From Streptomyces sp. R302 (GTDB taxonomy: Bacteria; Actinomycetota; Actinomycetes; Streptomycetales; Streptomycetaceae), in contig NZ_JABBGE010000010.1 of NCBI RefSeq assembly GCF_012927245.1, positions 186,001 to 250,000 of the forward strand: 64,000 bases of DNA, written 5' to 3'. The notes under the pieces were generated by a model, which saw only the letters and a list, made by a program, of their open reading frames with translations, was not told the DNA's origin and ran no database searches. Shown in pieces: positions 5,525 to 50,365 of this stretch (positions within the stretch are counted from its first letter, which is position 1; the number at the start of each line of letters is the position of its first letter). Made by a program: the position numbers and the translations under genes.

Positions 5525-5584
5525 GATGGACCCCTTCTTCGCTCAGCGTCACCGCGTGGGCCGTATGGGTGATCAATTCCTATC

Positions 5585-5600
5585 ATTGGTCTAAACCATT
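5585..5600. promoter_or_regulatory. HutC/DasR-type operator
   Basis: ATTGGTCTAAACCATT contains the near-perfect dyad TGGTCT-AAACCA and matches the GT-N-TA-N-AC pattern bound by HutC-type GntR regulators. It is one central base away from the TGGTCTAGACCA core published for DasR-responsive elements. It lies in the divergent gap between the GntR gene and the DUF2252 gene, so it may be the autoregulatory site of the local repressor or a site for DasR itself. Confidence 0.55.
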
Positions 5601-5705
5601 CCGCTAGGGCGACCGTGCAGAGTGGCCGAAACCCGCGCGGCGCCCTGTAATGGGGACCAGGCGACAGGACCGGCGATGCCGGCGGAGGAACAGGGGTGAG
5701 GCCGG

Positions 5706-7046: not shown

Positions 7047-7047
7047 C

Positions 7048-7100
7048 GGAGGGCGGGCCCCGGAGCCCGGAGGGCGTGCGGACACCACCGCCCGCCCTCC
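7048..7100. terminator. Long-stem bidirectional terminator
   Basis: GGAGGGCGGGC at 7048-7058 pairs perfectly with GCCCGCCCTCC at 7090-7100, two bases after the DUF2252 stop codon and 13 bases before the end of the convergent monooxygenase gene. The 31-base loop contains a smaller GC-rich hairpin. The position between convergent genes supports a terminator for both. Confidence 0.6.
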
Positions 7101-7113
7101 GACGGCCGGACGG

Positions 7114-35574: not shown

Positions 35575-36558
35575 TTGAGCGCGCAGCATCCCTCGCGCAG
35601 GAACATCCTCAAGTCCGCGGGCGGCCTGTCGGCCGCCCTGGCGCTGGGCGGCGCGGGTGTCGTCGCCGCGGCCGGGCCGGCCGCCGCCGTCGGCGACGGT
35701 TTCGGGCTGCGGATCGTGGAGCGCGGCGAGGCCGACCACCGCATGTGGTACTACCGGTTCGCCACCGACGCCATCGGCTGGAACCCGGCCGTGAACGTGC
35801 TCCTTCCCGACGACTACCACTGGAGCGGCCGCCGCTACCCCGTGCTGTACCTGCTCCACGGCGGCGAGCAGGACTTCATCACCTTCGACCGCGAGGGTGT
35901 CCGCGCCTGGACCGCGGGCAAGCCGCTCATCGTGGTCATGCCCGACGGCGGGCGGACGGGCTGGTACTCCAACCCGGTCAGCTCCAACGTCGGCCCGCGC
36001 AACTGGGAGCACTTCCACATCGCGCAGCTGATCCCGTGGATCGACGCGAACTTCCGCACCTACGCCGAGTACGACGGCCGTGCCGTGTCCGGCTTCTCCA
36101 TGGGCGGCTTCGGCGCGCTGAAGTACGCGGCCAAGTACTACGGCCACTTCGCCTCCGTCAGCGCCCACTCGGGCCCGGCCAGCCTCCGCCGCGACAACGG
36201 CATGGTGGTCCACTGGGCCAACGCCACCTCCGCGGCGCTCGAACTGGGCGGCGGCACGGTCTACGGCGCGCCGTTCTGGGACGAGGCGCGCGTGAGCGCC
36301 GACAACCCGGTCCAGCGGATCGAGAGCTACCGCCACAAGCGGGTCTTCCTGGTCGCCGGCACCAGCCCGGACCCGGTCAACTGGTTCGACAGCGCCAACG
36401 AGTCCCATGTCCTCTGGGGGCAGCGGGAGTTCCGTTCTCTCCTCGGAAACGCGGGCATCCCGCACGAGTGGCACGAGCTGCCCGGCGGCCACTACATCCG
36501 CCACGACATGATGCAGCGCGACATCGACGGCGTCATCCAGCGGCTCCGCAAGGCGTGA
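35575..36558 (+). CDS. Tat-exported esterase (esterase D/antigen 85-like)
   Basis: This 327-residue secreted alpha/beta hydrolase begins with a twin-arginine signal (SRRNILKSAGGLSAALALGG, cleavage near AAA). The hydrolase part has LYLLHGGEQDF (oxyanion), the nucleophile in VSGFSMGGFGALKYA and the terminal His in PGGHYIRHD, as in the esterase D/mycolyltransferase group. Streptomycetes lack mycolates, so acylester hydrolysis is more likely. The TTG at 35575 is chosen because GGAGGT lies seven bases upstream; an earlier GTG has no ribosome site. It leads the run of propeller-bearing secreted proteins and is related to the esterase at 45480. Confidence 0.87.
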   Translation: MSAQHPSRRNILKSAGGLSAALALGGAGVVAAAGPAAAVGDGFGLRIVERGEADHRMWYYRFATDAIGWNPAVNVLLPDDYHWSGRRYPVLYLLHGGEQDFITFDREGVRAWTAGKPLIVVMPDGGRTGWYSNPVSSNVGPRNWEHFHIAQLIPWIDANFRTYAEYDGRAVSGFSMGGFGALKYAAKYYGHFASVSAHSGPASLRRDNGMVVHWANATSAALELGGGTVYGAPFWDEARVSADNPVQRIESYRHKRVFLVAGTSPDPVNWFDSANESHVLWGQREFRSLLGNAGIPHEWHELPGGHYIRHDMMQRDIDGVIQRLRKA

Positions 36559-36632
36559 GCCCCGGTGCGCGGCGCGCCCACGCGGCGCGCCGCGCACCTC
36601 TGACGTACCACCCCCACCCAAGGAGACCGCAG

Positions 36633-38135
36633 GTGACGAGTGTTCGACGCCCCGCAGCGGGCGGCCCCCGGCCCCGGCCCTCCCGACGCCGTGCCCCGCA
36701 CCGGATCGCCGCGTCGGCCCTCACGTCGCTGCTGCTCGCCGCCGGCGCCCTCGCCGGCGCGTCTCCGGCGCACGCGGCCGGGAGCGATCTGTGCGCCCAG
36801 GTCGGCTACCAGGCCGGTTTCCGGGGCGAGGCGCTGGTGACGGCCGTGGCCGTGGCCCTCGCCGAGTCCAGCTGCAACCCGCTGGCGTCCAACACGCAGA
36901 ACAACTCGCCCGCCTCCACCGACCGCGGCCTGTGGCAGATCAACGACTACTGGCACTCCGAGGTCGACGACGCCTGCGCCTACGACGCGCAGTGCAACGC
37001 GCACGCGGCCTTCGACATCTCCTCCGGCGGTACGAACTGGCAGCCCTGGTCCACCTACAACCAGAACCTGCACGAGCGGCACCTGGACGAGGCGCGGGCC
37101 GCGGTCGACCGGCTCGGGCACCCGGGGGAGCCCGGGCCCGCCCCGCTGGTGTACCCGGCCGAGTCGGGCCGGGTCGTCTCCGCCCGCTCGGCGGACGGCC
37201 GCCTGGAGGTGTTCGCCGCGGGCGCCGACGGCGTGCACCACGCCTGGCAGGTCGAGGTGAACGGCGCCTGGTCGGCCTGGGAGCCGCTCGGCGGTCCGGC
37301 CGGCGCGGAGCTGGCCATCGCGCCCGACGCGGACGGCCGCCTGGAGCTCTTCGCGATCGACGGGAACACCTTCCAGCACCGCTACCAGGTGTCCCCGTCC
37401 GGCGGCTGGTCGGGCTGGGAGACCTTCGGCGGGGGCGGCACGGACGCGGCGGCAGGGGTGAACGCCGACGGCCGGATCGAGGTGTTCGCCTCCGGTCCCG
37501 CCGGTCTGTTCCACAAGTACCAGACGGCGCCGAACGGCGGCTGGTCGGAGTGGGAGCCGACCGGGGGCGGGCCCGCCGACGCCCGGGTGGAGATGGAGAA
37601 GTCCCGCGACGGACGCCTCGAGGTATTCGCCCTCAACGGGGACGTCTTCCAGCACCAGTACCAGACGTCCCCCAACGGCGGCTGGTCCCCGTGGGACGCC
37701 TTCGGCGGCGGCGGGCACGACCTGACCGTGGACCACAACGCCGACGGACGCCTTGAGGTCTTCGCCTCCGGACCGGTCGGCGTCTTCCACAAGTACCAGA
37801 CCAGCCCCACGAGTTGGTCCGAATGGGAGTCGACGGGAGGGCCCGCGGACGCGCGCCTCACGAGTGAGCGCAGCCCGGACGGGCGGGTCGAGGTCTTCGC
37901 GATCAACGGCACCACCGCCGCGCACACCTGGCAGACCGGGGTCAACGCCCCGTACAGCGCCTGGGAGACCTTCGGCACCGGCGGCACGGAGGTCGCGGCC
38001 GCCACGAACGCCGACGGCCGGATCGAGGTCTTCGGAGCCAACCCCACCGGCACCTTCCACCGGTGGCAGACCGGCTTCTCCACCTGGTCGGCCTGGGGCT
38101 GGGTCAACGACTCCGCGGGTCCGGGACTCGACTGA
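36633..38135 (+). CDS. Secreted lysozyme-like hydrolase with PLL-type beta-propeller
   Basis: This 500-residue exported protein has a Sec-type signal (SLLLAAGALAGASPAHAA). A small transglycosylase-like domain follows (SDLCAQVGYQAGFRGEALVT, catalytic Glu in VAVALAESSCNP, then DRGLWQINDYW, about residues 50-165), then seven or so 40-50-residue repeats with alternating DGRLEVFA...FQHRYQ..SGGWSGWE...GG motifs. These repeats resemble the PLL/tectonin lectin propellers that bind fucosylated or O-methylated glycans. A model is glycan-targeted wall lysis. GTG at 36633 follows AAGGAGACC. It lies two bases from the next gene's start. Confidence 0.85.
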   Translation: MTSVRRPAAGGPRPRPSRRRAPHRIAASALTSLLLAAGALAGASPAHAAGSDLCAQVGYQAGFRGEALVTAVAVALAESSCNPLASNTQNNSPASTDRGLWQINDYWHSEVDDACAYDAQCNAHAAFDISSGGTNWQPWSTYNQNLHERHLDEARAAVDRLGHPGEPGPAPLVYPAESGRVVSARSADGRLEVFAAGADGVHHAWQVEVNGAWSAWEPLGGPAGAELAIAPDADGRLELFAIDGNTFQHRYQVSPSGGWSGWETFGGGGTDAAAGVNADGRIEVFASGPAGLFHKYQTAPNGGWSEWEPTGGGPADARVEMEKSRDGRLEVFALNGDVFQHQYQTSPNGGWSPWDAFGGGGHDLTVDHNADGRLEVFASGPVGVFHKYQTSPTSWSEWESTGGPADARLTSERSPDGRVEVFAINGTTAAHTWQTGVNAPYSAWETFGTGGTEVAAATNADGRIEVFGANPTGTFHRWQTGFSTWSAWGWVNDSAGPGLD

Positions 38136-38136
38136 C

Positions 38137-40182
38137 ATGCGGCCGGTCAGCAGACGGAACCTGCTGCGGGGCGCCGCAGCGGCGGGGGCCCTTCCTCTCC
38201 TGGGCGCGACCCCTGCCCCTGCCGCTCCCGCCCCCACCATGCCCTTCCCGCCCGCCCGTTGGATCGGCTCGGGTCCCTTCACCCACGTGTACGACGCCTC
38301 CACCTCCACGGCGCGGCGCTACCTTAACGACCACACGCTCATCAAGTCCCAGGACCGCTGGCACCTGTTCAGCATCGTGGGGAACAGCGCACCGCCCGGC
38401 GAGTCCCCGGACAGCGGCGCCGAGACCGCCTTCGCGCACGCCTCCGCGCCCACGCCGTACGGCCCGTGGACCACCCACGCCGACGCCCTCACCGTCGACC
38501 CCGCCTACCACGGCGAGGAACACCTGTGGGCGCCGCACGTCGTCGAGGCGGGCGGCAGGTTCTGGATGTTCTACGCGGCGGGCGGACAGGGCGGGCAGGG
38601 CGGCGCGGCGGTCAACCTCGCCACGTCCACCGACCTGTCCACCTGGACGCGCGAACCGTCGGGGCCGCTGTTCCGGGGGCTCGCCGCCCGCGATCCGATG
38701 GTGCTGCGGGTCGGCGGCGAGTGGGTCATGTACTACACGGAGCTCTCGGGCCCGGGCGGCCGGCACATCGTGGCGTACCGGCGCTCCGACGACCTCGTCC
38801 ACTGGAGCGCCCCGGGCACCGCCTTCGCCGACGCGAGCACGGACGCCACCGTCTCGGTCACCGAGTCGCCGTACGTGGTGGAACGGGACGGCTGGTACTA
38901 CCTGTTCATCGGCCCGAGGGGCGGCTACGAGGGGACCGACGTCCTGGCGTCGCGCGACCCCTTCCGCTTCGACCTCGCGGGCTGGGCGGGCCATGTGCCC
39001 GGACACGCCGTCGAGGCGGTCGCCGACGGCGATACCTGGTACGTCACGGCCGCGGGCTGGTTCCGGCAGGGCCTGTACGTGGCGCCGCTGGAGTGGCGGG
39101 ACACGCCGCCGACCTGGCAGAGCCCGGACAATCCGGTGGCCGGCCTCGACGCCGCCGGCCGCCTGACCGTCTTCGCGCTGGACGCTGCCGACCGCTCGAT
39201 GCTGCGGCGCGTCCAGCTCGACCCGGCCGCCGACCTGTGGTCGGGGTGGGAGCGGTTCGGCGGCCCGGCCGGCGCGGTCCCGACCCTCGGGCGGGGTGCG
39301 GACGGACGCCTTGAGGTGTTCTCGCTCGCTCCCGGCGGCGTGAACCTGCACCACCGGGTCCAGCGGCCGGACGGCGGCTGGTACGACTGGGAGGAGTTCG
39401 GCGGCCCCGCCGGTGCCGCACCCGCCGTCGCCCGTGACGCCTCGGGCCGTCTGGAGGTCTTCGCCCTGGCGCCCGGCGGCACCTCCTTCGCGCGGCGTCG
39501 GCAGACGGCGCCGGGTTCGCTCGTCTGGGACCCGTGGGAGCCCGGCTTCGGCGGTGCCGCCGGGGCGCCGCCGGTGGTCGGCGTCAACGCCGACGGCCGC
39601 CTCGAGGTGTTCGCGCTGAGTCCGGGAGGTGCGGGCATACGCCACCGGTGGCAGGAGGCGCCCGGGGGAGCGTGGACACCGGCGTGGCACTCGTTCGGCG
39701 GCCCGGCCGGCACCGCGCCGCGCGCCGCACGCGACGGCAGCGGCCGGCTGACGGTCGCCGCCGTCGGTCCCTCCGGCGTGGGCACCTTCACCCGACGGCA
39801 GTCCGTGCCGAGCGGCGGCTGGGACGCGTGGCTGCCGCTGTTCGGCTGGAGCGCGGGCGCCCCCGCCCTCGCCGTCAACGCCGACGGCCGCCTCGAAGCC
39901 TTCTCGCTGACGCCCGGCGGCGCCCGGCTCGCCCACCGCTGGCAGCTCTCCCCGGGCGGAACGTGGGACGCCGGGCGCGAGTTCGGCGAACCGGGCCTCC
40001 GCCTCGCCGCCACGCCCACCGCCGCCGTGGACGCCACGGGACGGATCCACGTCTTCGCCGTCACCCCGGAGGGCGGGGTACGGACCCGTGTCCAGGCGCG
40101 GCCGAGTGGCGAGTGGCAGCCGTGGACCGCGTTCGGCGACCGTCCGATCGCCCCCGTCGTCGCGGGCGCCCCCGTCCCCTGA
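38137..40182 (+). CDS. Tat-exported GH43-like enzyme with PLL-type propeller
   Basis: This 681-residue protein opens with a twin-arginine signal (SRRNLLRGAAAAGALPLLG). Residues ~40-330 form a five-bladed glycosidase-like domain of the GH43/GH32 kind: NDHTLIKSQDRWHLF, HLWAPHVVEAGGRFWMFYA, RDPMVLRVGGEWVMYYT and TESPYVVERDGWYYLFIG supply the usual Asp/Asp/Glu set. The C-terminal half repeats ADGRLEVFSLAPGG...HRVQ...WYDWEEFGGPAG seven times, a variant of the propeller of its neighbours. It starts one base after the previous stop, so it is coupled. Likely an extracellular arabinan- or fructan-active enzyme; the sugar is not predictable. Confidence 0.85.
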   Translation: MRPVSRRNLLRGAAAAGALPLLGATPAPAAPAPTMPFPPARWIGSGPFTHVYDASTSTARRYLNDHTLIKSQDRWHLFSIVGNSAPPGESPDSGAETAFAHASAPTPYGPWTTHADALTVDPAYHGEEHLWAPHVVEAGGRFWMFYAAGGQGGQGGAAVNLATSTDLSTWTREPSGPLFRGLAARDPMVLRVGGEWVMYYTELSGPGGRHIVAYRRSDDLVHWSAPGTAFADASTDATVSVTESPYVVERDGWYYLFIGPRGGYEGTDVLASRDPFRFDLAGWAGHVPGHAVEAVADGDTWYVTAAGWFRQGLYVAPLEWRDTPPTWQSPDNPVAGLDAAGRLTVFALDAADRSMLRRVQLDPAADLWSGWERFGGPAGAVPTLGRGADGRLEVFSLAPGGVNLHHRVQRPDGGWYDWEEFGGPAGAAPAVARDASGRLEVFALAPGGTSFARRRQTAPGSLVWDPWEPGFGGAAGAPPVVGVNADGRLEVFALSPGGAGIRHRWQEAPGGAWTPAWHSFGGPAGTAPRAARDGSGRLTVAAVGPSGVGTFTRRQSVPSGGWDAWLPLFGWSAGAPALAVNADGRLEAFSLTPGGARLAHRWQLSPGGTWDAGREFGEPGLRLAATPTAAVDATGRIHVFAVTPEGGVRTRVQARPSGEWQPWTAFGDRPIAPVVAGAPVP

Positions 40183-40692
40183 GTTCGGGGGCGCCGCCGG
40201 TCCCGGCGTACGGATCGCGCCACGCGGCGGATGGCGAAAGGCCCCCGAACAGGCCGGAAGGACCGCGGGGGAGGCCCGGCCGACCGCCCGGGGTCGTGAC
40301 CTTTCCCACCTTGCGGACGGGAGCGGGGCCGTTCGGCGGCCCCGCCCCGGACGCGACGCCGTGCCGAGCCCGAGCGGTCCGCCGAGACCTCGTACGCGCG
40401 GGCGACCTCCGGAACACCTGCTTCCGCCGCCCGGAAAACTGGAAAAGCGTTCTAAAAGCTGTCTGTCGCCGAGGAAGGAGGTGTCTCCCGTCACAGACGG
40501 CGTCCCGCCCCCGGCCGCCGTCCGGCGCCCCCCGGGACCGCCTCGCCGGGTCGCCGGAGCAGACCCCGACCCGGCCCCGGAGCGGCCCGGTCCGAGGCCG
40601 CCGCCGGGTGGCCGAAGCGTGCCGGTACACCCCGGTAAGGGGTGGGTATCGTTCCGCTCGTCCGGCAGGCGGGCGATGCGGAAGGGGGCGCG
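40183..40692. other. Intergenic region with a hairpin and an A-rich patch
   Basis: This 510-base stretch has no gene I can defend. GCGGGGCCG-TTCGG-CGGCCCCGC at 40323-40345 is a perfect 9-bp hairpin, a candidate terminator for the propeller operon. An unusually A-rich patch (GGAAAACTGGAAAAGCG, 40432-40450) may hold the promoter of the FHA-kinase operon, and AAGGAGG lies near 40476. A Pro/Arg-rich frame runs from there to 40696, overlapping the FHA gene start by ATGA, but its weak codon bias argues against it. Confidence 0.5.
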
Positions 40693-41493
40693 ATGAGCGG
40701 CGTGGTCGTACATCTGCCGCGGGGCGGCGGAGGCGCCGACGGCGGCGAACTGCGGGCCGAGGCGGTGACGTTGAGGCTCGGTCCCGGCGAGGCCGCGCGC
40801 TTCGGCCGCGGCTCCCCGGGCACACCGGTCGAACTGCGCCTCGCCGACGCCGCGGTCTCCCGGCTCGCCGGGGAGATCCGCGTGACCGACGACCACTGGC
40901 AGCTGACCAACCACAGCGACACCCACACCTACCTCGTGGAGAACCCGGAGGGGGCGGGCGAGTACCTCAGGGTCCCGCCGCGCCGGGTCGGCGCACCCGT
41001 CCCCTTCGAGTTCGCCCGGGTCGTCCTGCCCACTCGGGGCGAACTCCCCGTCGCCTTCCAGGTGTTCGCGCCCGACCACGTGTACCTCGACCCCGGGGCC
41101 GTCGGCGGCCCCTGGGAGAGCCGCACGGTCACCGCGTACTCCCTCGACGAGACCGCCACCTACTTCCTCGTCCTCGTCGCGCTCTGCGAACCGCGGCTGC
41201 GCGACCAGTCCCGCGTCGCCGTCCCCACCACGCCCCAGATCGTCGACCGGCTCCGGGCCCACGCCGACCGCGCCCCGCTCTCCGCGCGGGCCGTCAGCTC
41301 GCACATCGACTACCTCGCCGAGGAGAAGCTGCGCATCGACGGCCGCGCGCAGGGCCAGGGCGACCGCCGCAACGGCAAACGCGAGGAGATCGTCGGGCTC
41401 GCGCTCCGCTTCGGACTCGTACGGGAGGAACACCTCGCGCTGCTGCCGCCCGCACCCCGGGCGGCCGGACCCGCCCGGAACGCCGCGCGATGA
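40693..41493 (+). CDS. FHA-domain protein partnered with a Ser/Thr kinase
   Basis: This 266-residue cytoplasmic protein has an N-terminal forkhead-associated fold: ARFGRGSPGTPVELRLADAAVSRLAGEIRV contains the GR, S-R and phosphothreonine-contacting positions, and WQLTNHSDTHTYLVEN the distal strands. The C-terminal ~110 residues (VALCEPRLRDQSRVAVPTTPQIVDRL ... AVSSHIDYLAEEKLRI) look like a winged helix. FHA domains bind phosphothreonine peptides. It overlaps the kinase gene by four bases, so the two are made together. The kinase probably phosphorylates it or a shared partner. GAAGGGGGC precedes the ATG. Confidence 0.85.
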   Translation: MSGVVVHLPRGGGGADGGELRAEAVTLRLGPGEAARFGRGSPGTPVELRLADAAVSRLAGEIRVTDDHWQLTNHSDTHTYLVENPEGAGEYLRVPPRRVGAPVPFEFARVVLPTRGELPVAFQVFAPDHVYLDPGAVGGPWESRTVTAYSLDETATYFLVLVALCEPRLRDQSRVAVPTTPQIVDRLRAHADRAPLSARAVSSHIDYLAEEKLRIDGRAQGQGDRRNGKREEIVGLALRFGLVREEHLALLPPAPRAAGPARNAAR

Positions 41494-42899
41494 CCTCCCT
41501 CCACGTACGCGCCGACACGCCGGGCCGGGACGACCTTCCGGAAGGGCTCCCGCCCGGCCGCCGGGTGGGGGAGTGGGAGGTCGTCGAGCAGATCGGCACC
41601 GGCGGCTGGTCCACGGTCTACGCGGCGCGCCCGGCTCCCGGCCACGCACGGACCGGCTCCGCGGCACGGCCGCCGGAGACCACCGCCGTCGCCCTCAAGA
41701 TCATGCCGACCGCCGGGCTCGCACCCCTCCAGGCACGCAGGATCGTGGAGTCGGCGCGCCGCGAGGTCGCCCTCGGCCGCGGGGCCGGACACCCCCGGCT
41801 GATCGGCCTCCTGGACTCCTTCGCGCTCTCCGCACCGGACCACCCCTCGCTGGACGGCGCCATGGTGCTCGTCATGGAGCGGGCCGCCGGCAGCCTGCGC
41901 GACCTCCTCGACGCGGGCGCCGCCGAGGCCGACCTCGACCGCGTCGCCACGGGCATCTGCGAAGGGCTCGCCCACCTCCACGGCGCGGGATGGGTCCACG
42001 CCGACCTCAAACCGGAGAACGTCCTCCTCGGCGAGGACGGCTCCGTGAAGCTCTCCGACTTCGGCCTCGCCACCGAACTCACCGGCACCCACGCCTACGT
42101 ACCGCCCCTCGGCACGCTCGACTACATGCCGCCGGAACGCCGGCGGGCTCCCCTGGGAGAGCTCGGGATCCAGGTCCGCACCAGCGCCGACGTCTGGGCC
42201 CTCGGCATCGTCCTCCACGAGCTCTTCGCCGGCGGCGCCCGGCCGTTCCCCGGCGCCACGCCGATCGCCCGGAGCGCCGCCGCCCAGGAGTACGCGGCGG
42301 GTCGCGCCCCCCTCCGCCTCGACCCCGCCGTGCCGCCGTTCTGGCGCGGCATCGTCGCCGACTGCCTCGCCCCCACCCACGCCTCCCGCGCCCCGCACAC
42401 GGCCGAGAGCCTCCTCGCCCGCATCGCCGCCCGGCGGCCCGACGGACCCGGAGCCCCCCGGCGCGCGTTCCGCCGCGGGACCCGCGCGGCGGTACTCGCC
42501 GCCGTCCTCTGCGGCACCGGCGCCGCCCTCTGCGCCGACACGACCGGGCACGGCCCCGGCGCGCCGGCCGGCACCGTCCGGGTCTTCAACGCGGAGCGCG
42601 GCTGTCAGGAACGGGCCGACCGCGACCGGCACTGCAGCCTCGGCCTGGCGATCGACCCCCACCGCCCCTACACGGCCGAGAACGTCGTACGGACCAGGGT
42701 CTGGCACGGCGACCTCCTCACCGTCGACTGCCGCGTCGACGACGGTCAGCCCATCGTCGACGAGGAGGACACGCGGTCCACCCGCTGGTTCCGCGTCCGC
42801 CTCTCCCACGCCTCCGTACCCCCCGACGCCTGGCTCCCCGCCGTCCGCACCAGGGACAGTCCCGCCCTGCCGGCATGCCGCCCGCCCGCCTCCCGCTGA
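41490..42899 (+). CDS. Membrane Ser/Thr protein kinase with HAD catalytic loop
   Basis: This 469-residue protein has a Hanks-type kinase domain (about residues 25-310): IGTGGWSTVYAA (glycine loop), VALKIM (Lys), HADLKPENVLL (catalytic Asp172), SDFGLATEL, GTLDYMPPERR and DVWALGIVLHEL. The usual HRD Arg is Ala here, so it is a non-RD kinase that may not need activation-loop phosphorylation. One membrane helix (AVLAAVLCGTGAALCA) leads to a ~100-residue outer domain with four cysteines but no PASTA repeats. It is coupled to the FHA gene. Confidence 0.9.
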   Translation: MTSLHVRADTPGRDDLPEGLPPGRRVGEWEVVEQIGTGGWSTVYAARPAPGHARTGSAARPPETTAVALKIMPTAGLAPLQARRIVESARREVALGRGAGHPRLIGLLDSFALSAPDHPSLDGAMVLVMERAAGSLRDLLDAGAAEADLDRVATGICEGLAHLHGAGWVHADLKPENVLLGEDGSVKLSDFGLATELTGTHAYVPPLGTLDYMPPERRRAPLGELGIQVRTSADVWALGIVLHELFAGGARPFPGATPIARSAAAQEYAAGRAPLRLDPAVPPFWRGIVADCLAPTHASRAPHTAESLLARIAARRPDGPGAPRRAFRRGTRAAVLAAVLCGTGAALCADTTGHGPGAPAGTVRVFNAERGCQERADRDRHCSLGLAIDPHRPYTAENVVRTRVWHGDLLTVDCRVDDGQPIVDEEDTRSTRWFRVRLSHASVPPDAWLPAVRTRDSPALPACRPPASR

Positions 42900-42917: not shown

Positions 42918-42948
42918 TCATCGGTATTTCATCGCCCCTTCCTAGCGT
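42918..42948 (+). promoter_or_regulatory. SARP-type promoter of the acylase-esterase operon
   Basis: TCATCGG (42918-42924) and TCATCGC (42929-42935) are direct heptamer repeats with an 11-bp period; a 7-base CCCTTCC spacer leads to a -10 element TAGCGT (42943-42948). There is no -35 hexamer. This is the architecture of SARP-activated promoters, in which the activator occupies the repeats over the -35 region. A nearly identical element with the same spacing precedes the C40-propeller gene (48275-48305). Confidence 0.7.
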
Positions 42949-42993
42949 GGCCGCGTCCGGACGCAGACCCGGACCTCACGGAGGGGCGTAACG

Positions 42994-45483
42994 ATGGCAC
43001 GGAGAAGACGAAGGGCGAGACTGCCGGTGGCGGTCGCGGCCCTGGCGGCGGTGGCGAGCACCATCGCGGCCGGCGGGACACCGGCCGGTGCCGCCGCGAC
43101 GGCACCGGAGCGGCCGACGATCCGCTACACCGAGTACGGGATCCCGCACATCATCGCCTCCGACTGGGAGGGACTGGGCACGGGATACGGATACGCGGCG
43201 GCCAAGGACAACATCTGCACCCTGGCCGACACCTATCTGATGGTCAACGCCGAGCGCTCCCGCCACCTGGGGCCCGACGGCAGGACGAGCCCCGGCCAGA
43301 ACCAGAACACCACCACCAACCTCAACAGCGACCTGTACTTCCAGCGGATCAAGGACGACGGCGTCGTGGAGCGACTGCTGGCCCAGCCGGCGCCCGACGG
43401 TCCTGAACCCCAGGTCGAGGAGGCCATCCGCGGCTACGTCCAGGGATACAACCGGTACCTGGCGGAGACGGGCGTGGAGAACCTCTCCGACCCGGCCTGC
43501 CGCGGCGCGGCCTGGGTACGGCCGATCACCGAACTCGACGTCTACCGGCACGCCCACGCCGAGATCATGATGGGCAGCGCCGACCCGCTCCTCGACGGCC
43601 AGGTCACCGCCGCGCCCCCGGGGGCGTCGGCGGCGGCGGTGCCCGCGCCCTCGGCGGAGGAGCGCGCGCGGACCGCGAAGAAGACGGCCAAGGCCATCGG
43701 CGAGGCGCTCGCGGAGAGCCGCCGGCAGGGCATGGGCAGCAACGCGCTCGCGGTCGGCTCGCAGGGCGTCTCCGGCGGCACCGGCATGCTCCTCGCCAAC
43801 CCGCACTTCCCGTGGCACGGCAAGAACCGCATGTGGCAGAGCCATCTGACGATCCCGGGCGAGGTGAACGTCTCCGGGGCCAGCCTCCTCGGCCTTCCCG
43901 CGGTGAACATCGGGCACAACGACGACGTCGCCTGGAGCCACACCGTCGCGACGGTCGCGCCGTTCGGCCTCTTCGACGTGCAGGTCGACCCGCTGAACCC
44001 GACCATGTACCTGGTCGACGGCGCCTGGGAACGGATGAAGTCGCAGCAGGTCTCCGTCGCGGTGCGCAACGCGGACGGCACGACCGGCACGGTCACCCGG
44101 ACCCTGTGGTCCACCCGCTACGGGCCCATCACCACCTCGATCCTCGGCTACCCGCTGCCCTGGGTCGTCAGCGCCCACGCGGTACGCGACGTGAACCGGG
44201 ACAACCTGCGCGCCCTGAACACCTGGTTCGGTCTCGACCGGGCGAAGGACGTCCACGAGGTGGTGGACGTCCTGGAGACCACCCAGGGCGTCCCCTTCTT
44301 CAACACGGTCGCCACCGACCGCAAGGGCAACGCGCTCTACGCCGACATCCAGGCCGTCCCGAACATCACCGACGCGCACGCGCAGTCCTGCCTCACCGAG
44401 ACCGGCAAGCTGCTGTTCCACCAGGCGCTGCCGCTGTCGAACGTGCCGCCGGTCTCCATCCTCGACGGCAAGCGCAGCGCCTGCGACTGGCCCGACGACC
44501 CGAACGCGGCCGCACCCGGCCTCCTCGATCCGGCGAAGCAACCCCGCCTGATCCGCACCGACTTCGTCGGCAACGCCAACGACAGCCCCTGGCTGCCCAA
44601 CCCGGAGCAGCCGCTGACCTTCCCCCGCGTCATGGGCGACATGGCCGCGCCCCGCTCGCTGCGCACCCAGGAACTGCTCCTGACCGCGCGGAAGCGGATC
44701 GACGGGACCGACGGCCTTCCCGGCCGGGGCTTCACGCCGGAGACCATGGGGAAGCTGCTCTTCGCGGACAACAGCCGGGCGGCGGACCTCACGCTCGACA
44801 CCACGGTGGCGGCGTGCCGGGCGGTCGCCTTCGGGCTCGTCCTGGTGGACGGCAACCTCGTCGACATCAGGGAGGCCTGCCCGGTCCTGGCGGGCTGGAA
44901 GAGCCACGACTACACGGCGGACAGCCGGGGTTCCTGGCTGTTCGCGAACTACTGGCACCATCTGCAGGGTTCACAGCGCCTGGAGAAGCTGCCCTGGCGG
45001 GTCCCGTTCGACGCAAACGACCCGGTGCACACGCCCAATTCGCTCGACGGCGGCAGCTCCGCCGTCCGCGACTCCCTCGCGCGGGCCGTGCTCGCCATGC
45101 GCAAGGCCGGCATCCCGCTGGACGGGGCGCTCTCGGACGTGCAGAGGATCACCCGCGGCGGCGAGCAGATCCCGGTCCACGGCTCGTACGGAGTCCTCGG
45201 GGTGCTGAACGTGATCGAGCCCGGCCAGGTGGACGGCAGGCTCGACATCGTCTTCGGATCCAGCTTCGTCCAGCAGGTGCGGTTCACCGCCGAGGGGCCG
45301 CCGGAGACGTACTCCGTCCTGGCCTACTCCCAGTCGGCGAACCCGAACTCGCCGCACCACGCCGACCAGACGAAGTTGTTCGCGGCCGGCGGCTGGGTGA
45401 CCGAACGGTTCACCGAGGAACAGATCGCGGCCACCCCGGACCTGAAGGTCGTGGTCCTGGACACGAAGGGAACAGCACGATGA
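42994..45483 (+). CDS. Secreted penicillin acylase-family N-acyl amidohydrolase
   Basis: This 829-residue exported enzyme is an N-terminal nucleophile hydrolase. After a signal peptide (cleaved near AAG/GTPAGAAA) comes the alpha subunit, an internal linker, and the beta subunit starting at the autocatalytic Ser249 in GMG-SNALAVG. ANPHFPWHG and the later IGHNDDVAWSHT are family hallmarks. It most resembles the actinobacterial aculeacin A/acyl-homoserine lactone acylases, which remove fatty acyl chains from lipopeptides, penicillins or quorum signals. The ATG follows GAGGGG. It leads an operon with an esterase and is preceded by a SARP-like promoter. Confidence 0.93.
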   Translation: MARRRRRARLPVAVAALAAVASTIAAGGTPAGAAATAPERPTIRYTEYGIPHIIASDWEGLGTGYGYAAAKDNICTLADTYLMVNAERSRHLGPDGRTSPGQNQNTTTNLNSDLYFQRIKDDGVVERLLAQPAPDGPEPQVEEAIRGYVQGYNRYLAETGVENLSDPACRGAAWVRPITELDVYRHAHAEIMMGSADPLLDGQVTAAPPGASAAAVPAPSAEERARTAKKTAKAIGEALAESRRQGMGSNALAVGSQGVSGGTGMLLANPHFPWHGKNRMWQSHLTIPGEVNVSGASLLGLPAVNIGHNDDVAWSHTVATVAPFGLFDVQVDPLNPTMYLVDGAWERMKSQQVSVAVRNADGTTGTVTRTLWSTRYGPITTSILGYPLPWVVSAHAVRDVNRDNLRALNTWFGLDRAKDVHEVVDVLETTQGVPFFNTVATDRKGNALYADIQAVPNITDAHAQSCLTETGKLLFHQALPLSNVPPVSILDGKRSACDWPDDPNAAAPGLLDPAKQPRLIRTDFVGNANDSPWLPNPEQPLTFPRVMGDMAAPRSLRTQELLLTARKRIDGTDGLPGRGFTPETMGKLLFADNSRAADLTLDTTVAACRAVAFGLVLVDGNLVDIREACPVLAGWKSHDYTADSRGSWLFANYWHHLQGSQRLEKLPWRVPFDANDPVHTPNSLDGGSSAVRDSLARAVLAMRKAGIPLDGALSDVQRITRGGEQIPVHGSYGVLGVLNVIEPGQVDGRLDIVFGSSFVQQVRFTAEGPPETYSVLAYSQSANPNSPHHADQTKLFAAGGWVTERFTEEQIAATPDLKVVVLDTKGTAR

Positions 45484-46556
45484 AGAGGACAACGCTCTGG
45501 TGGAGGACGGCGGTGGCGTGGGCGGTCGCCGCCGTGGCCGTCATCGCGCCCGTCGGCTCGGCCCGCGCCGACGCCGGCACCACCCCGCCGAACCTGCCGG
45601 ACGGTTTCGGCCTGACCCAGGTCGCGCCCGCCGTGGGCGACGCCCACGCCTTCCACCTCACGGTCACCACGCCCCAGGTGTCGGGCGAACAGCACATCAA
45701 GATCATTCTCCCGCGCGGCTACTACGACGACCCGGAACGGCGCTACCCGGTCCTGTACTTCCTGCACGGCTCGCCCGACGACCCCGTCAACCAGACCTAC
45801 CCGGCCCTGTCGATGTCGGACCGGATGATCACCGTCATCCCCGACGGCGGCGCGCGGAGCTGGTACGCGAACTGGCTCAACCAGAAGACCGTCCTCGGCG
45901 CCCAGAACTGGGAGACCTTCCACCTGGAGCAGGTGATCCCGTTCGTCGACGCGAACCTGCGGACCCTCGCGACCAAGAAGTCCCGGGCGGTCGCCGGCAT
46001 CTCCATGGGCGGCTTCGGGGCCTTCCACTACGCCCAGGCCCGCCCCGACCTCTTCGGCCAGACCGCTTCCCTCTCGGGAGACATCGACCTGTCGGCCAAC
46101 TCCATGGACCTGCGCATGGCCGTCGTCGCCTCCGTCACCGACGCCATGGGCGCGGTGTGCGCCTCCTCGTCCGGCTACTGCGACCCGGAGAACTCGGCGT
46201 ACAAGCCCGGCGTGGACAGCGACGCCCTGTTCGGCTCGCCCTACCCGGTGTTCAACGTCGACTGGCGGTGGAACCAGGTCGACCCGTCGCAGCACATGGA
46301 CCGGCTCCGGGGCATCGGCATCTCGATCTACACCGGCGACGGCGGCGGTTCGCCCCTGAACCCGGAGTTCTGGGTCTCGGGCGCGTCCAAGAACGTCAAG
46401 GCCCGCCTGGACGCCCTGGGCATGCCGTACTACTTCGTGAACTACGGTGACGGCTCCGGCTGGGGCACCCAGTGCGACGGCGGCCACAACTCCGGTTGCT
46501 GGACGCAGTCCCTGCTCGACCTGATCCCCAGGCTGGAACGGGCCTTCGCCTCCTGA
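45480..46556 (+). CDS. Secreted esterase (esterase D/antigen 85-like)
   Basis: This 358-residue protein has a Sec signal (VAWAVAAVAVIAPVGSARA) and an alpha/beta hydrolase domain with LYFLHGSPDDP, GARSWYANWLN, the nucleophile in VAGISMGGFGAFHYA and a C-terminal CDGGHNSGCW carrying the catalytic His between two cysteines that may pair. It shares the fold and many motifs with the Tat-exported esterase at 35575 but uses a different export route. The start overlaps the acylase stop by four bases, so the two enzymes are co-expressed under the SARP-like promoter. A perfect 21-bp terminator stem follows. Confidence 0.9.
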   Translation: MKRTTLWWRTAVAWAVAAVAVIAPVGSARADAGTTPPNLPDGFGLTQVAPAVGDAHAFHLTVTTPQVSGEQHIKIILPRGYYDDPERRYPVLYFLHGSPDDPVNQTYPALSMSDRMITVIPDGGARSWYANWLNQKTVLGAQNWETFHLEQVIPFVDANLRTLATKKSRAVAGISMGGFGAFHYAQARPDLFGQTASLSGDIDLSANSMDLRMAVVASVTDAMGAVCASSSGYCDPENSAYKPGVDSDALFGSPYPVFNVDWRWNQVDPSQHMDRLRGIGISIYTGDGGGSPLNPEFWVSGASKNVKARLDALGMPYYFVNYGDGSGWGTQCDGGHNSGCWTQSLLDLIPRLERAFAS

Positions 46557-46571
46557 CCGTACGGTACGGGC

Positions 46572-46621
46572 GCCCGTCGCCGCCCCGCTCCCGACCGCAG
46601 GGGAGCGGGGCGGCGACGGGC
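46572..46621. terminator. 21-bp perfect stem terminator
   Basis: GCCCGTCGCCGCCCCGCTCCC (21 bases, 46572-46592) is perfectly complementary to 46601-46621, with an 8-base loop. It lies 16 bases after the esterase stop codon and before the end of the convergent C40-propeller gene, so it can stop transcription from both sides. Confidence 0.9.
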
Positions 46622-46642
46622 TTCCCGCCACGGCGTCCGACC

Positions 46643-46686
46643 GACCGGTGGGACCGGTGGGGCCGGTGGGGCCGGTGGGACCGGTC
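46643..46686. repeat. Five tandem 9-base repeats
   Basis: Units GGACCGGTG or GGGCCGGTG repeat about five times in the short gap before the end of the C40-propeller gene. Alternating A and G at one position make the array symmetrical. No function is evident. Confidence 0.75.
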
Positions 46687-46690
46687 AGGG

Positions 46691-48247
46691 TCAGGGCATC
46701 GCGGGCCCGGAGCCGTTCAGCCAGGCCCATTCCGACCAGTCGGCGAAGCTCGTCTGCCAGCGGTGGTAGACGCCGGCGTGGCTGGTGCCGAAGACCTCGA
46801 TGCGTCCGTCGGCGTTGGCGGACGCGGCGATCTCGGTGCCGCCGCCGCCGAAGGTCTCCCAGGCCGAGAACGGCGCGTTCCGCCCCGTCTGCCAGGAGTG
46901 GCTCGCCGTCGTCGCGTTGATCGCGAACACCTCGACGCGGTCGTCGACCGTCCGCGCGGTGGTCAGCTCGGCGTCGGGGATCCCGCCGGTGCCCGTCCAC
47001 TCCGACCACGAGGCGGGACCGGTCTGCCACTTGTGGAAGACGCCGTCGGCGTTCGAGGCGAACACCTCCAGACGGCCGTCCTGGTTGTGGCTGACGGCGA
47101 GGTCGTGCCCGCCGCCGCCGAAGTTCTCCCAGCCGGACCAGCCGCCGTCGACGGCGGTCTGGTACAGGTGGCCGAAGGTCGAGTCCGACAGGGCGAAGAC
47201 CTCCAGGCGCCCGTCGGGCGCGGACTCCATGGCGAGCCGCGAGAGCGCCGGGCCGCCGGCGACGCCCTCCCAGGACGACCAGCCGCCGCTGGGCGCCGTC
47301 TGCCAGCGGTGGAACACGCCGTCGGCGTTGGACGCGAACACCTCGACGCGGCCGTCGGCGTTGGCGCCCGCGGCCAGCCGGTATCCGCCGGTGCCGAAGT
47401 TCGCCCAGCCGGACCAGCCCGCGCTGGGCGCGGTCTGCCACATGTGGTCGAAGGTGGCGTCCGAGAGCGCGAACAGTTCGAGCCGGCCGTCCGCGTTGGC
47501 CGCGAGGGCCAGCTGCGCATTGCGCGGGCCGCCCTTGAACTGCCACGGCGACCAGCCGCCGTTCACCTCGGTCTGCCAGGAGTGGTACACGCCGTCGGCA
47601 CCGGCGGCGAAGGCTTCGAGGCGTCCGTCGGCGGACCGCGCGGACACCACCCGGCCCGAGCCGTTGGGGTGCGCCCTGCGCGTCTCGGCCTCGTCGACGA
47701 TGTTGTGGTATCGCCGGGCCTTGTAGTCGCCGTTCGGATGGCCGTCGATCGTGGCGGCGCCGATGTTCCCGTAGAAGTGCCCCGGCGGTTCGACGCCGCT
47801 GGAGCCGCCGCCGAAGCTGTAGTAGGAGAAGCCGCCCTGGTCGTCCACCCACTCGTGGAAGACGATCACGTGGTTGTAGAACGAGTTGAGGATGTCACCG
47901 GCCCGCAGCTCGCCGCGCGCGATCTCGTACGAGAAGTTCGGCAGGCCCTGCGTGCTGGGGTTGGCGTCGAGGTGCCAGGCCATGGCCACGAACCCGGAGC
48001 AGTCGGTGCGGTAGTCGTAGTCGCCTCCGGGGCCCGGCCAGTAGGCCCTCTGGCTGTACGGCGGCGCCTGGTCCACCCAGATCTGCGCACGCTGGATCAC
48101 CTCGCTCCGGGTGATCGGGCCGCCGCGGTCGGAGGCGGCCGCGGCCGTGACGCGCGCCGCGGCGGGCGGCGCGACGCCGGCCAGCAGCAGCGCGCCGGCC
48201 AGCAGGGGAAGGAGGAACCCGCCCCACCATGATCGTGACTTCTTCAC
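46691..48247 (-). CDS. Secreted C40-type cysteine hydrolase with PLL-type propeller
   Basis: This 518-residue exported protein has a Sec signal (LLPLLAGALLLAGVAPPAAA). A small amidase/NlpC-like domain follows: YRTDCSGFVAMAWHL holds the catalytic Cys and YNHVIVFHEWVD the His (about residues 75-135). From residue ~190 come about seven propeller repeats (ADGRLEAFAAGADGVYHSWQ...GGWSPW) very close to those of the lysozyme-like protein at 36633. Together these suggest a glycan-targeted peptidoglycan amidase. The GTG at 48247 follows GGGAGG. Its promoter repeats that of the acylase operon. Confidence 0.88.
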   Translation of the reverse strand: MKKSRSWWGGFLLPLLAGALLLAGVAPPAAARVTAAAASDRGGPITRSEVIQRAQIWVDQAPPYSQRAYWPGPGGDYDYRTDCSGFVAMAWHLDANPSTQGLPNFSYEIARGELRAGDILNSFYNHVIVFHEWVDDQGGFSYYSFGGGSSGVEPPGHFYGNIGAATIDGHPNGDYKARRYHNIVDEAETRRAHPNGSGRVVSARSADGRLEAFAAGADGVYHSWQTEVNGGWSPWQFKGGPRNAQLALAANADGRLELFALSDATFDHMWQTAPSAGWSGWANFGTGGYRLAAGANADGRVEVFASNADGVFHRWQTAPSGGWSSWEGVAGGPALSRLAMESAPDGRLEVFALSDSTFGHLYQTAVDGGWSGWENFGGGGHDLAVSHNQDGRLEVFASNADGVFHKWQTGPASWSEWTGTGGIPDAELTTARTVDDRVEVFAINATTASHSWQTGRNAPFSAWETFGGGGTEIAASANADGRIEVFGTSHAGVYHRWQTSFADWSEWAWLNGSGPAMP

Positions 48248-48274
48248 TCGGACCTCCCAGGTCGTCGGCGGCCG

Positions 48275-48305
48275 ACCTTAGGAAGGGGCGATGAAATACG
48301 GATGG
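48275..48305 (-). promoter_or_regulatory. SARP-type promoter of the C40-propeller gene
   Basis: On the minus strand CCATCCG-TATT-TCATCGC-CCCTTCC-TAAGGT reproduces, in the same spacing, the promoter at 42918-42948; 27 of 31 positions agree. The heptamers keep an 11-bp period, and the -10 is TAAGGT (48280-48275), about 30 bases before the GTG. The SARP gene starting at 49483 lies immediately upstream. Confidence 0.7.
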
Positions 48306-48376: not shown

Positions 48377-49483
48377 TCAGGCGAACGGCATCGACGCGTC
48401 CGCACCCACCGGCCGGCCGAGCCCGGTCTCGTCCCCGCACAGGATCATCCGGCGGGTCCGGCGCAGCAGCATGCTCGGGGTGACCCCCAGGTCGTCGGCG
48501 AGCCGCCGGCAGGTGCGGTCGAACACGGCGAGCGCCTCCGCCTGCCGGCCGGTGCGGTACAGGGCGCGCATCAGCAGCGCCGCGACCGGCTCGTTCCACG
48601 GCTGCTCCGCGGACAGCGCGAACAGCTCGGCCACGGCGTCCGCGCACCGGCCGAGCCGCAGTTGGCACTCCGCCTTCCACCGCGCGAGGGCGATCCTGCG
48701 CTCGCCGAGCCGCACCCGCTCCAGCTCGGCGAGCGGCCCGGGCAGCCCGTCCAGCGGCTCGCCCCGGAACAGCCCGAGCGCCCGCGAGCAGAGGCGTACC
48801 ACCTCGGCCGGATCGTCCGCCCGGTCCGCCGCCCCGACGGCGGCCACCAGCTTCTCCAACCGGGCCAGGTCCACGTCGACCCTGCCCGGGACCAGGCGGT
48901 AGCCGCGGCGCCGGTCGTGCTCGATGACGGTGTCCGGTCCTTCGTCGGTACGCAGGGTCCCGCGCAGCCGGTAGACGTACACCGGCACCACGTTGGCGGC
49001 CGGCGGCTCCATGCCCCAGATGCCGTCGAGGAGTTCCTGCCGGCTCAGCGTCCGCCCCGCCTCCATCGCCAGCGCGGCCAGGACGGCCTGCTGGCGCGGA
49101 TGCCCCAGACCCAGTGGCCGTCCGTCCCGCCACGCCCGCAGCGGGCCGAGGACCGAGATCCGGATCTCCGGCGCGCCGTCCCCGCGGGTACGGGCCCGCG
49201 GCACCGACCGGTCCGCGGGCCGCGCCCGGGGGCCGTGCCCCGGCGCGACCAGGCCCGCGTCGAAGGCGTGGACGATCGCGGCGGCCCGGTCCCGCAGACC
49301 CAGCTTCACGAGGATCCGCGCGAGGTGCTCGGCCACCCTCTCCTCGGGGAGGGCGAGCGAGGCGGCGATCTCGTCGTCCCGCAGGCCGCAGCCGACCGCG
49401 GTCAGCACCCGGCGCTCCAGCGGCCCGAGCGCGACGGCGGTCGGCCGGCAGGTGGGTCGGCCGGTGGCGGTCGTCGGCAACAT
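48377..49483 (-). CDS. LuxR-SARP fusion regulator
   Basis: This 368-residue regulator joins two DNA-binding modules. Residues ~15-75 form a LuxR/GerE-like helix-turn-helix (LGPLERRVLTAVGCGLRDDEIAASLALPEERVAEHLARILVKLG). Residues ~110-190 are an OmpR-type winged helix (ISVLGPLRAWRDGRPLGLGHPRQQAVLAAL) and ~200-350 a bacterial transcriptional activation (BTAD) domain (VDLARLEKLVAAVGAA ... WNEPVAALLMRALYRTGRQAEAL). The last two define SARP activators. GGAGG lies close before the ATG at 49483; longer frames lack a ribosome site. SARP-like repeats precede the adjacent propeller gene and the acylase operon, its likely targets. Confidence 0.88.
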   Translation of the reverse strand: MLPTTATGRPTCRPTAVALGPLERRVLTAVGCGLRDDEIAASLALPEERVAEHLARILVKLGLRDRAAAIVHAFDAGLVAPGHGPRARPADRSVPRARTRGDGAPEIRISVLGPLRAWRDGRPLGLGHPRQQAVLAALAMEAGRTLSRQELLDGIWGMEPPAANVVPVYVYRLRGTLRTDEGPDTVIEHDRRRGYRLVPGRVDVDLARLEKLVAAVGAADRADDPAEVVRLCSRALGLFRGEPLDGLPGPLAELERVRLGERRIALARWKAECQLRLGRCADAVAELFALSAEQPWNEPVAALLMRALYRTGRQAEALAVFDRTCRRLADDLGVTPSMLLRRTRRMILCGDETGLGRPVGADASMPFA

Positions 49484-49598: not shown

Positions 49599-50171
49599 CT
49601 ACGGGGTGAGCCAGCGGCGGAGCACTCTGCTGACGGCCGGCATCGACACGTACGTCATGAACACGTTGAAGACGCAGGCGGTGACCAGACTGCCGAGGAG
49701 GAGGGGGAGACCGGTGAGACGGGGCGTCAGGAAGAGGCCGCCGAGGACGGAGATCGGGTAGATCGCCAGGGTCGCGCTCACCGCCATCTTCCAGCGCGGC
49801 GGCGCGGGCCGGGTGGAACCCGGCTCGGCGAACCACGTCTCCATACCGGTCAGCTTCCGCCGCGCGATCTCGGTGTGGTGGTGCCCCTCGCAGTCGGCGA
49901 ACCAGGCCGCCCGCTCCGGCGACTCCTGCCAGGTCCGGCAGGCCTCCGCGTCCCGGAACCGGTGCACCAGGAACCAGGGGGCGTCGCCGCCGGAGGAACG
50001 GAAGAGCCCGTACCCGAGGTGGCCGGGGAAGGTCGCGGCGGTGTCGAGGATGCCCCGCGCCCACGACTGGAACGAGGCCTCGTGGCCGGGCTCCACCCGG
50101 CGGGCTATCAGCAGGGTCACCTCGCCGGTGTCGGCGGGGACGGTGGCGTGCTCAAGGCTGACCGCGGTCAA
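49599..50171 (-). CDS. Antibiotic biosynthesis monooxygenase (ABM) domain protein with two membrane helices
   Basis: This 190-residue protein has a ferredoxin-like ABM domain (VTLLIARRVEPGHEASFQSWARGI ... WFLVHRFRDAEACRTWQESPER) in its first ~110 residues, followed by two hydrophobic helices (VSATLAIYPISVLGGLFL and LPLLLGSLVTACVFNVFMTYVS). This membrane-anchored form is common in bacteria and has no established substrate. I take the TTG at 50171 as start because GAGGAG is five bases upstream; the frame to 50237 has no such site. It is transcribed alone ahead of the SARP gene. Confidence 0.85.
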   Translation of the reverse strand: MTAVSLEHATVPADTGEVTLLIARRVEPGHEASFQSWARGILDTAATFPGHLGYGLFRSSGGDAPWFLVHRFRDAEACRTWQESPERAAWFADCEGHHHTEIARRKLTGMETWFAEPGSTRPAPPRWKMAVSATLAIYPISVLGGLFLTPRLTGLPLLLGSLVTACVFNVFMTYVSMPAVSRVLRRWLTP

Positions 50172-50365
50172 CTCGACTCCTCGTGATCTCACCGCGCCCG
50201 CGCCCACTCTACCGACGAGCCGGAACCGGACAGGCACGGGAAGGGCCGCACAGGACGGGACAGGCCCCGACGCCCGAGGTATGCCCTTGACGTGTGCCCC
50301 CTCCGGCGAGACCCCGATTCCCGGCCGCCACGGCGCGGCGGGCGGCGGTTCCTGCTCGCCGTCCC

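What the first reader, a model, noticed from the sequence alone, without database searches (positions are those of the whole stretch)
42918..48305. Two secreted-enzyme operons share a SARP-type promoter, with a SARP gene next door
Upstream of the acylase-esterase operon (42918-42948) and of the divergent C40-propeller gene (48305-48275, minus) the same 31-base element recurs with 27 identities: heptamers TCATCGG/CCATCCG and TCATCGC with an 11-bp period, a CCCTTCC spacer and a TAnnnT -10, and no -35. This is the known SARP-binding layout. A LuxR-SARP fusion gene lies directly upstream of the second site. SARPs usually govern antibiotic clusters; a SARP regulon of extracellular acylase and propeller-hydrolases would be unusual.
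Basis: partly seen in the sequence, partly recalled or inferred. Interest (0 to 1): 0.78.

Follow-up and report, generated by a model that had tools for sequence, protein, structure and literature searches.

The report
LuxR-SARP regulon of secreted hydrolases
Two neighbouring sets of secreted-enzyme genes in a Streptomyces share an on-switch of the type read by antibiotic-activating 'SARP' proteins; the same switch recurs beside the same regulator in dozens of other genomes, so this SARP very probably controls extracellular hydrolases rather than an antibiotic.

Summary
In detail: the two 31-bp elements are there (27/31 identical), never occur in shuffles, and are the only two good matches in the 7.9-Mb genome. 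Comparative genomics makes the link convincing. The neighbouring regulator (LuxR/GerE + OmpR-type DNA-binding + BTAD, 368 aa) has orthologues at 80 further loci. There, TCATCG-N5-TCATCG (at most 1 mismatch) precedes 33/35 acylase, 30/30 cutinase-like and 13/16 propeller-protein genes, against 1/623 other genes. The -10 (NANNNT) lies exactly 8 bp after the second repeat in every one of these acylase, cutinase, propeller, esterase and C40 promoters: the published SARP geometry. In a separate scan of 199 genomes, 22 of 35 perfect boxes lie within about 7 kb of this SARP gene (0.007 expected); all 22 have the spaced -10, against 0 of 9 in genomes without it. Best explanation: the LuxR-SARP binds these boxes as a side-by-side dimer and activates the acylase-esterase operon and the C40-propeller gene. 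SARP-type regulators outside antibiotic clusters are known (EmbR), so this is a new variant of a known kind: a SARP subclass with its own box and a conserved exo-enzyme regulon. Binding, signal and enzyme substrates are untested.

The parts
42918..42948 (+). Box A: SARP-type promoter element. Repeats TCATCG 42918-42923 and TCATCG 42929-42934, 8-bp spacer, -10 TAGCGT 42943-42948; predicted start of transcription near 42955
   Evidence: orthologous boxes upstream of 33/35 acylase genes
42994..45483 (+). Secreted Ntn-hydrolase acylase (Penicil_amidase family), nearest solved relatives MacQ and PvdQ; nucleophile Ser249, His271
   Evidence: Pfam PF01804 E 6e-126; PDB search; NCBIfam PvdQ 573 bits, below cut-off 950
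45480..46556 (+). Secreted esterase (PF00756; PS1/Ag85-like and CE1-like), overlapping the acylase stop codon, hence same operon
46572..46621 (.). Very stable G+C-rich hairpin between the two convergent units, probably a shared two-way terminator (no clear U tract)
   Evidence: fold z-score -6.4
46691..48247 (-). Secreted protein: N-terminal C40-like Cys/His domain (DCSGFV, NHVIVFHEW; by motif reading) plus propeller repeats (FG-GAP-like)
   Evidence: relatives with a swapped N-terminal domain
48275..48305 (-). Box B: repeats CCATCC 48305-48300 and TCATCG 48294-48289, 8-bp spacer, -10 TAAGGT 48280-48275; predicted start of transcription near 48268
   Evidence: same box upstream of the C40-type orthologues in L022, L023, L024, L029
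48377..49483 (-). LuxR-SARP regulator, 368 aa: GerE helix-turn-helix 21-73, linker, OmpR-type winged helix 105-202, BTAD 204-348. No box upstream of it
   Evidence: box upstream of 0/80 orthologues

Best explanation
The gene at 48377-49483 encodes a single-copy LuxR-SARP activator. Two SARP protomers (OmpR-type winged helix plus BTAD) bind side by side on the two TCATCG repeats, 11 bp apart, in box A and box B. The box takes the place of a -35 element (about -37 to -21) and ends exactly 8 bp before the -10, so the protein offers a docking point for sigma region 4 and RNA polymerase, as AfsR does at afsS. This switches on the acylase-esterase operon and the C40-propeller gene together; in this genome that is the whole regulon detected. 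Shown: the elements, their geometry and conservation, their tight association with this SARP, and the predicted SARP fold. Inferred: direct binding, activation, the dimer mode, and that the N-terminal LuxR domain (as conserved as the SARP part) gates or co-anchors the protein. The likely role is a coordinated extracellular set for deacylation, ester cleavage and wall cleavage (attack or scavenging), not antibiotic synthesis. The signal is unknown.
For: In 80 SARP loci the box (at most 1 mismatch) precedes 33/35 acylase, 30/30 cutinase-like, 13/16 propeller-protein genes against 1/623 other genes. The -10 sits at one fixed offset, 8 bp after repeat 2, in 35/35, 30/30, 13/13, 7/7 and 4/4 promoters, the SARP rule stated in PMC10936776. 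In 199 genomes 22 of 35 perfect boxes lie within about 7 kb of the SARP orthologue, 0.007 expected, and all 22 have the spaced -10 against 0 of 9 in genomes without it. The acylase orthologue occurs in 10 of 199 genomes, all 10 with the SARP (hypergeometric p 5e-11). Box columns carry 1.7-2.0 bits, DNA 20-60 bp upstream 0.2-0.4. Non-homologous targets share only the box, including a beta-lactamase-family gene in Actinocatenispora. Model matches AfsR bound to afsS, TM 0.89 on the target. Of 12 SARP-domain proteins in this genome only this one has the VxPxYVYxLR helix shared with LuxR-less SARPs beside TCATCG boxes.
Against: No binding or expression data. SARP and targets are physically linked, so co-occurrence alone does not name the binder; related genomes are not independent. 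Box B is weaker in repeat 1 (CCATCC). Some SARP loci, mostly in the PE-PPE clade, have degenerate boxes or none found. Only part of the AfsR DNA-contact residues are kept (W74, P79, R94; K95 in 85% of orthologues but Gly here; Q48 and T88 differ).
Confidence: 0.87

Rival explanations
1. The boxes are read by another SARP of the cell, most obviously AfsR, and the LuxR-SARP next door has other targets.
For: AfsR is near-universal in Streptomyces (PMC10972967) and is present here (L151); its box has the same register (TTCA at -27, repeats 11 bp apart; PMC10936776), and the cutinase promoters share the afsS -10 CACTGT.
Against: AfsR binding is lost when T-27 is changed to A (PMC10936776), yet 30/30 cutinase boxes have G at -27. 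Boxes with a spaced -10 are absent from SARP-less genomes, although AfsR should be there. The recognition helix of AfsR (VRTYASRLRK) differs; the helix type found beside TCATCG boxes is that of the LuxR-SARP.
Confidence: 0.07
2. The N-terminal LuxR helix-turn-helix, not the winged helix, reads the TCATCG repeats.
For: The LuxR domain is as conserved as the SARP domains (0.83 against 0.78 and 0.80) and models as a complete four-helix LuxR DNA-binding domain.
Against: LuxR-less large SARPs related in the winged helix sit beside the same TCATCG boxes (L150, L102). Direct 11-bp repeats placed 8 bp from the -10 are the SARP signature; LuxR sites are as a rule inverted repeats (general knowledge). 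The Lys usual in LuxR recognition helices is Ala here (general knowledge).
Confidence: 0.04
3. The two elements are chance or a recent duplication of promoter DNA without regulatory meaning.
For: They lie within 5.4 kb of each other, and a promoter duplication could make two copies.
Against: 0 in shuffles; the box alone stays conserved over divergent flanks in 35, 30 and 13 orthologous promoters and recurs upstream of non-homologous genes.
Confidence: 0.01

Closest known systems
AfsR and the afs box of afsS (Streptomyces coelicolor)
   Same: Same winged-helix plus BTAD fold (TM 0.89 on the target), 11-bp direct repeats, last repeat 8 bp from a weak -10, repeats in place of the -35 (PMC10936776)
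   Different: [quoted passage not shown] its recognition helix and repeat sequence differ; it acts on antibiotic production through afsS
Small SARPs such as ActII-ORF4 and RedD
   Same: Winged helix plus BTAD, heptamer repeats, activator logic (PMC10972967)
   Different: They lack the N-terminal LuxR domain and sit in biosynthetic clusters (82% of small SARPs, PMC12224297); here no biosynthetic genes recur widely
SARP-LAL regulators (PimR, SanG)
   Same: SARP domain combined with something called LuxR
   Different: Their extra part is a C-terminal ATPase half lacking the LuxR helix-turn-helix (PMC10972967); here a true LuxR helix-turn-helix is N-terminal and there is no ATPase
EmbR of Mycobacterium tuberculosis
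   Same: SARP-family regulator (PDB 2fez match) that acts outside antibiotic synthesis (PMC9239209)
   Different: EmbR is longer (388 aa) with, from general knowledge, a C-terminal FHA domain; no LuxR domain, other genes. That SARPs can act outside antibiotics is therefore not new in itself
PvdQ and MacQ acylases
   Same: The acylase is their relative (PDB 5c9i E 6e-143) with the Ntn nucleophile Ser249 aligned to residue 1 of the PvdQ beta chain
   Different: Below the NCBIfam PvdQ equivalog cut-off (573 against 950 bits); substrate unknown; regulation by a SARP not found in the papers searched

Membership tests
SARP family (regulator) | OmpR-type DNA-binding domain followed by BTAD | tested here: met
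   Pfam PF00486 and PF03704 above cut-offs; AlphaFold2 model matches AfsR and EmbR
SARP family (regulator) | DNA-contact residues listed for AfsR (Q48, W74, P79, T88, R94, K95) | tested here: inconclusive
   W156, P161, R174 invariant; K95 is Lys in 85% of orthologues but Gly here; Q48 aligns with Arg, T88 with Val/Ile
SARP family (regulator) | Binds its promoter DNA and activates transcription | not testable with these tools
   needs gel shift, footprint and mutant
SARP-type promoter box | Direct repeats with 11-bp period | tested here: met
   114 pairs at this spacing in 61/80 loci against 6-14 at other spacings off the codon period
SARP-type promoter box | Last repeat 8 bp from the -10 element | tested here: met
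   NANNNT at the same offset in 35/35, 30/30, 13/13, 7/7 and 4/4 promoters
Small SARP subclass | Only the winged helix and BTAD | tested here: not met
   additional N-terminal GerE domain, conserved in orthologues
SARP-LAL subclass | C-terminal ATPase (AAA) half | tested here: not met
   protein ends after BTAD at 368 aa
Antibiotic-cluster activator | Lies in a biosynthetic gene cluster | tested here: not met
   recurrent neighbours are secreted hydrolases; a ketosynthase-like gene recurs in only 6 of 80 loci. Distant target clusters are not excluded by this
PvdQ acylase (equivalog) | Score above the NCBIfam cut-off | tested here: not met
   573 bits against 950; it is a superfamily relative

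The most novel reading that the evidence does not exclude
A distinct SARP lineage, with its own recognition helix (VxPxYVYxLR) and box (TCATCG-N5-TCATCG-N8-NANNNT), is dedicated across Streptomycetaceae to an exo-enzyme set (acylase, esterases, cutinase, propeller-bearing wall hydrolases) used on other organisms' envelopes or lipids, with the N-terminal LuxR domain as a second DNA-binding or signal input.
Probability: 0.4. Interest if true: 0.7.

Novelty: new variant of a known kind. Interest (0 to 1): 0.6.

Why it matters
SARP genes are used as beacons for antibiotic clusters; this SARP family points to secreted hydrolases instead, so it would mislead such mining and widens the known role of SARPs in Streptomyces. 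It offers a sharp, testable box, a small regulon (two transcription units here), and natural variation of box and recognition helix for studying SARP specificity. It also ties a PvdQ/MacQ-like acylase, of interest for quorum quenching and lipopeptide deacylation, to a defined switch that could be turned on by expressing the SARP.

Tried and rejected
Chance or duplication: rejected by shuffles, the genome scan and conservation over divergent flanks. A larger regulon in this genome: the extra hits carry 3 mismatches (L003, L004, L021) or lie inside a coding sequence (L128). Autoregulation through the box: 0/80 SARP upstream regions. Link to a biosynthetic cluster: the only recurrent biosynthetic-looking neighbour is a ketosynthase-like gene in 6 of 80 loci. 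The monooxygenase-like (ABM) gene 49599-50237 upstream of the SARP has a relative in only 1 of 80 loci and is not part of the system. Cutinase-like target in this genome: not found, but that search had no positive control. The repeat-spacing test was confounded by codon period, so only spacings off multiples of three were compared. Two 'far' sites in SARP-bearing genomes (G052, G191 L102) did not fit the two-repeat geometry. Literature searches found no paper on this LuxR-SARP or its box, within an open-access library only.

Full report
CHECK OF THE OBSERVATION. The two elements are present at the stated coordinates and share 27 of 31 bases. Dinucleotide shuffles of the window give no match. 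In the whole genome (7.95 Mb) the 18-base core at up to 3 mismatches has four hits, two of which are these sites; a 31-base degenerate form finds the two sites and one 3-mismatch hit. The neighbouring protein carries GerE, Trans_reg_C and BTAD. Corrections: the C40-propeller gene faces the acylase-esterase operon (convergent, with a strong hairpin between them), it is a single gene, and the SARP starts most likely at ATG 49483, judged from orthologues.

ANATOMY. Acylase 42994-45483 and esterase 45480-46556 overlap by ATGA and form one operon behind box A. The C40-propeller gene 46691-48247 (minus) lies behind box B, which begins 72 bp after the end of the SARP gene. With the -10 taken as -12 to -7, transcription should start near 42955 and 48268 (inference). 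All three products begin with a Sec-type signal peptide (read from the sequence). The acylase is closest among solved structures to MacQ and PvdQ but misses the PvdQ equivalog cut-off; the esterase is nearest to the mycolyltransferase-like PS1 and to CE1 feruloyl esterases.

COMPARATIVE TEST 1: ORTHOLOGOUS LOCI. A first scan of 393 same-genus genomes with the core found 8 further genomes and 0 in the reversed control. In six of these the element precedes the acylase-esterase unit or what remains of it; in two it precedes a PE-PPE/cutinase-type esterase. A SARP orthologue lies in each of the five long loci examined, in one of them (L014) split over two frames. A scan with the SARP alignment gave 80 named loci, mostly Streptomyces and Kitasatospora. 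There TCATCG-N5-TCATCG occurs 114 times against 6-14 for other spacings off the codon period. Best match in the 250 bp upstream at no more than 1 mismatch: acylase 33/35, cutinase-like 30/30, propeller protein 13/16, PE-PPE esterase 6/25 (15/25 at 2), esterase with a site of its own 6/38 (most are second in the operon), SARP 0/80, kinase and GH43 neighbours 0, other genes 1/623. The -10 NANNNT falls at one fixed offset in 35/35, 30/30, 13/13, 7/7 and 4/4 promoters. The repeats hold 1.7-2.0 bits per column, the DNA 20-60 bp upstream 0.2-0.4. At L096 (Actinocatenispora, another family) the same box precedes a beta-lactamase-family gene whose product appears secreted.

COMPARATIVE TEST 2: A SCAN NOT SELECTED BY THE SARP. 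In 199 genomes the pattern YCATCGNNATKTCATCG has 35 perfect matches in 22 genomes, the reversed pattern none. The SARP orthologue is in 23 genomes. Twenty-two of the 35 sites lie within about 7 kb of it; 0.007 would be expected. All 22 have the spaced -10. Of nine sites in genomes without the orthologue none has it at that place, and three lie in predicted coding sequence. One of the nine (G014) turned out to be a three-repeat version, third repeat 8 bp from TAGCGT, upstream of a PE-PPE esterase and beside a large SARP without LuxR domain, 52% identical in the SARP part. The acylase orthologue occurs in 10 genomes, all 10 with the SARP.

THE REGULATOR. The AlphaFold2 model from 39 orthologues (mean pLDDT 86) has a LuxR-type helix-turn-helix, a disordered linker, an OmpR-type winged helix and an all-helical BTAD. 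It matches AfsR from the afsS initiation complex (TM 0.89 on the target) and EmbR; its N-terminal part matches LiaR and VraR DNA-binding domains (TM 0.84-0.89). The LuxR domain is as conserved as the rest. The recognition-helix stretch VxPxYVYxLR is found in none of the 11 other SARP-domain proteins of this genome, but a very similar stretch recurs in the LuxR-less SARPs next to TCATCG boxes. So the winged helix most likely reads the box, and this protein is the matching reader in this cell. A tree of 81 SARPs puts the window in a well-supported clade of loci with acylase or cutinase; a second group of loci has a PE-PPE esterase and a predicted ATPase instead.

MECHANISM. Published SARP promoters have repeats 11 bp apart, the last 8 bp from the -10, and AfsR docks sigma region 4 in place of a -35 contact (PMC10936776). 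The layout here is the same, so activation of both transcription units by a side-by-side dimer is the best explanation (0.87). Rivals are AfsR or another SARP (against: G at -27 in 30/30 cutinase boxes, and no spaced boxes in genomes without this SARP family), and reading by the LuxR domain (against: LuxR-less relatives with the same box). The role of the LuxR domain and the signal are unknown.

LIMITS. The statistics treat related genomes as independent. The SARP and its targets are physically linked, so association does not by itself identify the binder; different target families next to the same SARP and box, and the helix comparison, carry that step. No binding, expression or enzyme data exist here. 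The C40 assignment rests on motif reading, not on a profile match.

NOVELTY. Four SARP subclasses are described: small, medium, large and SARP-LAL (PMC12224297). This one fits none of them because of its N-terminal LuxR domain. SARP-type regulators outside antibiotic synthesis are known (EmbR, PMC9239209). I therefore call it a new variant of a known kind.

Noticed in passing
L015 4378/4399, L017 15340/15360, L018 9920/9943: In many relatives two boxes stand back to back about 20-40 bp apart and drive divergent genes (cutinase-like esterase one way, propeller protein or acylase the other). This genome appears to lack the cutinase-like gene.
   Followed up: partly
window 46691-48247 against L015 4494-6215: Behind the same promoter box the propeller part is about 80% identical while the N-terminal catalytic part is swapped (C40-like here, an unrelated domain in L015): a module exchange under a conserved switch.
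   Followed up: partly
L150 (G014) 4856-7795 with box at 8825; L102 (G191) box at 1501: Large SARPs without a LuxR domain, with the same recognition-helix type, lie next to three-repeat TCATCG boxes; the third repeat is again 8 bp from the -10. The box class is wider than the LuxR-SARP.
   Followed up: partly
window 35575-42899: Upstream cluster of a TAT-type esterase, a lysozyme-like propeller protein, a GH43-like propeller protein, a small FHA-like protein and a Ser/Thr kinase; kinase, FHA-like and GH43 genes recur near the SARP in 10-18 of 80 loci but have no box.
   Followed up: partly
L086 7435-9012 and 27 other loci: A gene for a NACHT-like ATPase (by motif reading; no Pfam hit) lies about 2 kb from the SARP in 28 of 80 loci, mostly those with the PE-PPE esterase; possibly a signalling partner.
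   Followed up: no
window 48275-48260 (minus) and propeller promoters of other loci: Directly after the -10 the propeller promoters keep GTCGGCCGCCGAC, a palindrome that could be an operator for a second regulator.
   Followed up: no
L014 13654-14680; L010 21-1301: The SARP gene of G311 is split over two frames (pseudogene or sequencing error); in G102 the box and the esterase remain but no acylase match follows.
   Followed up: no
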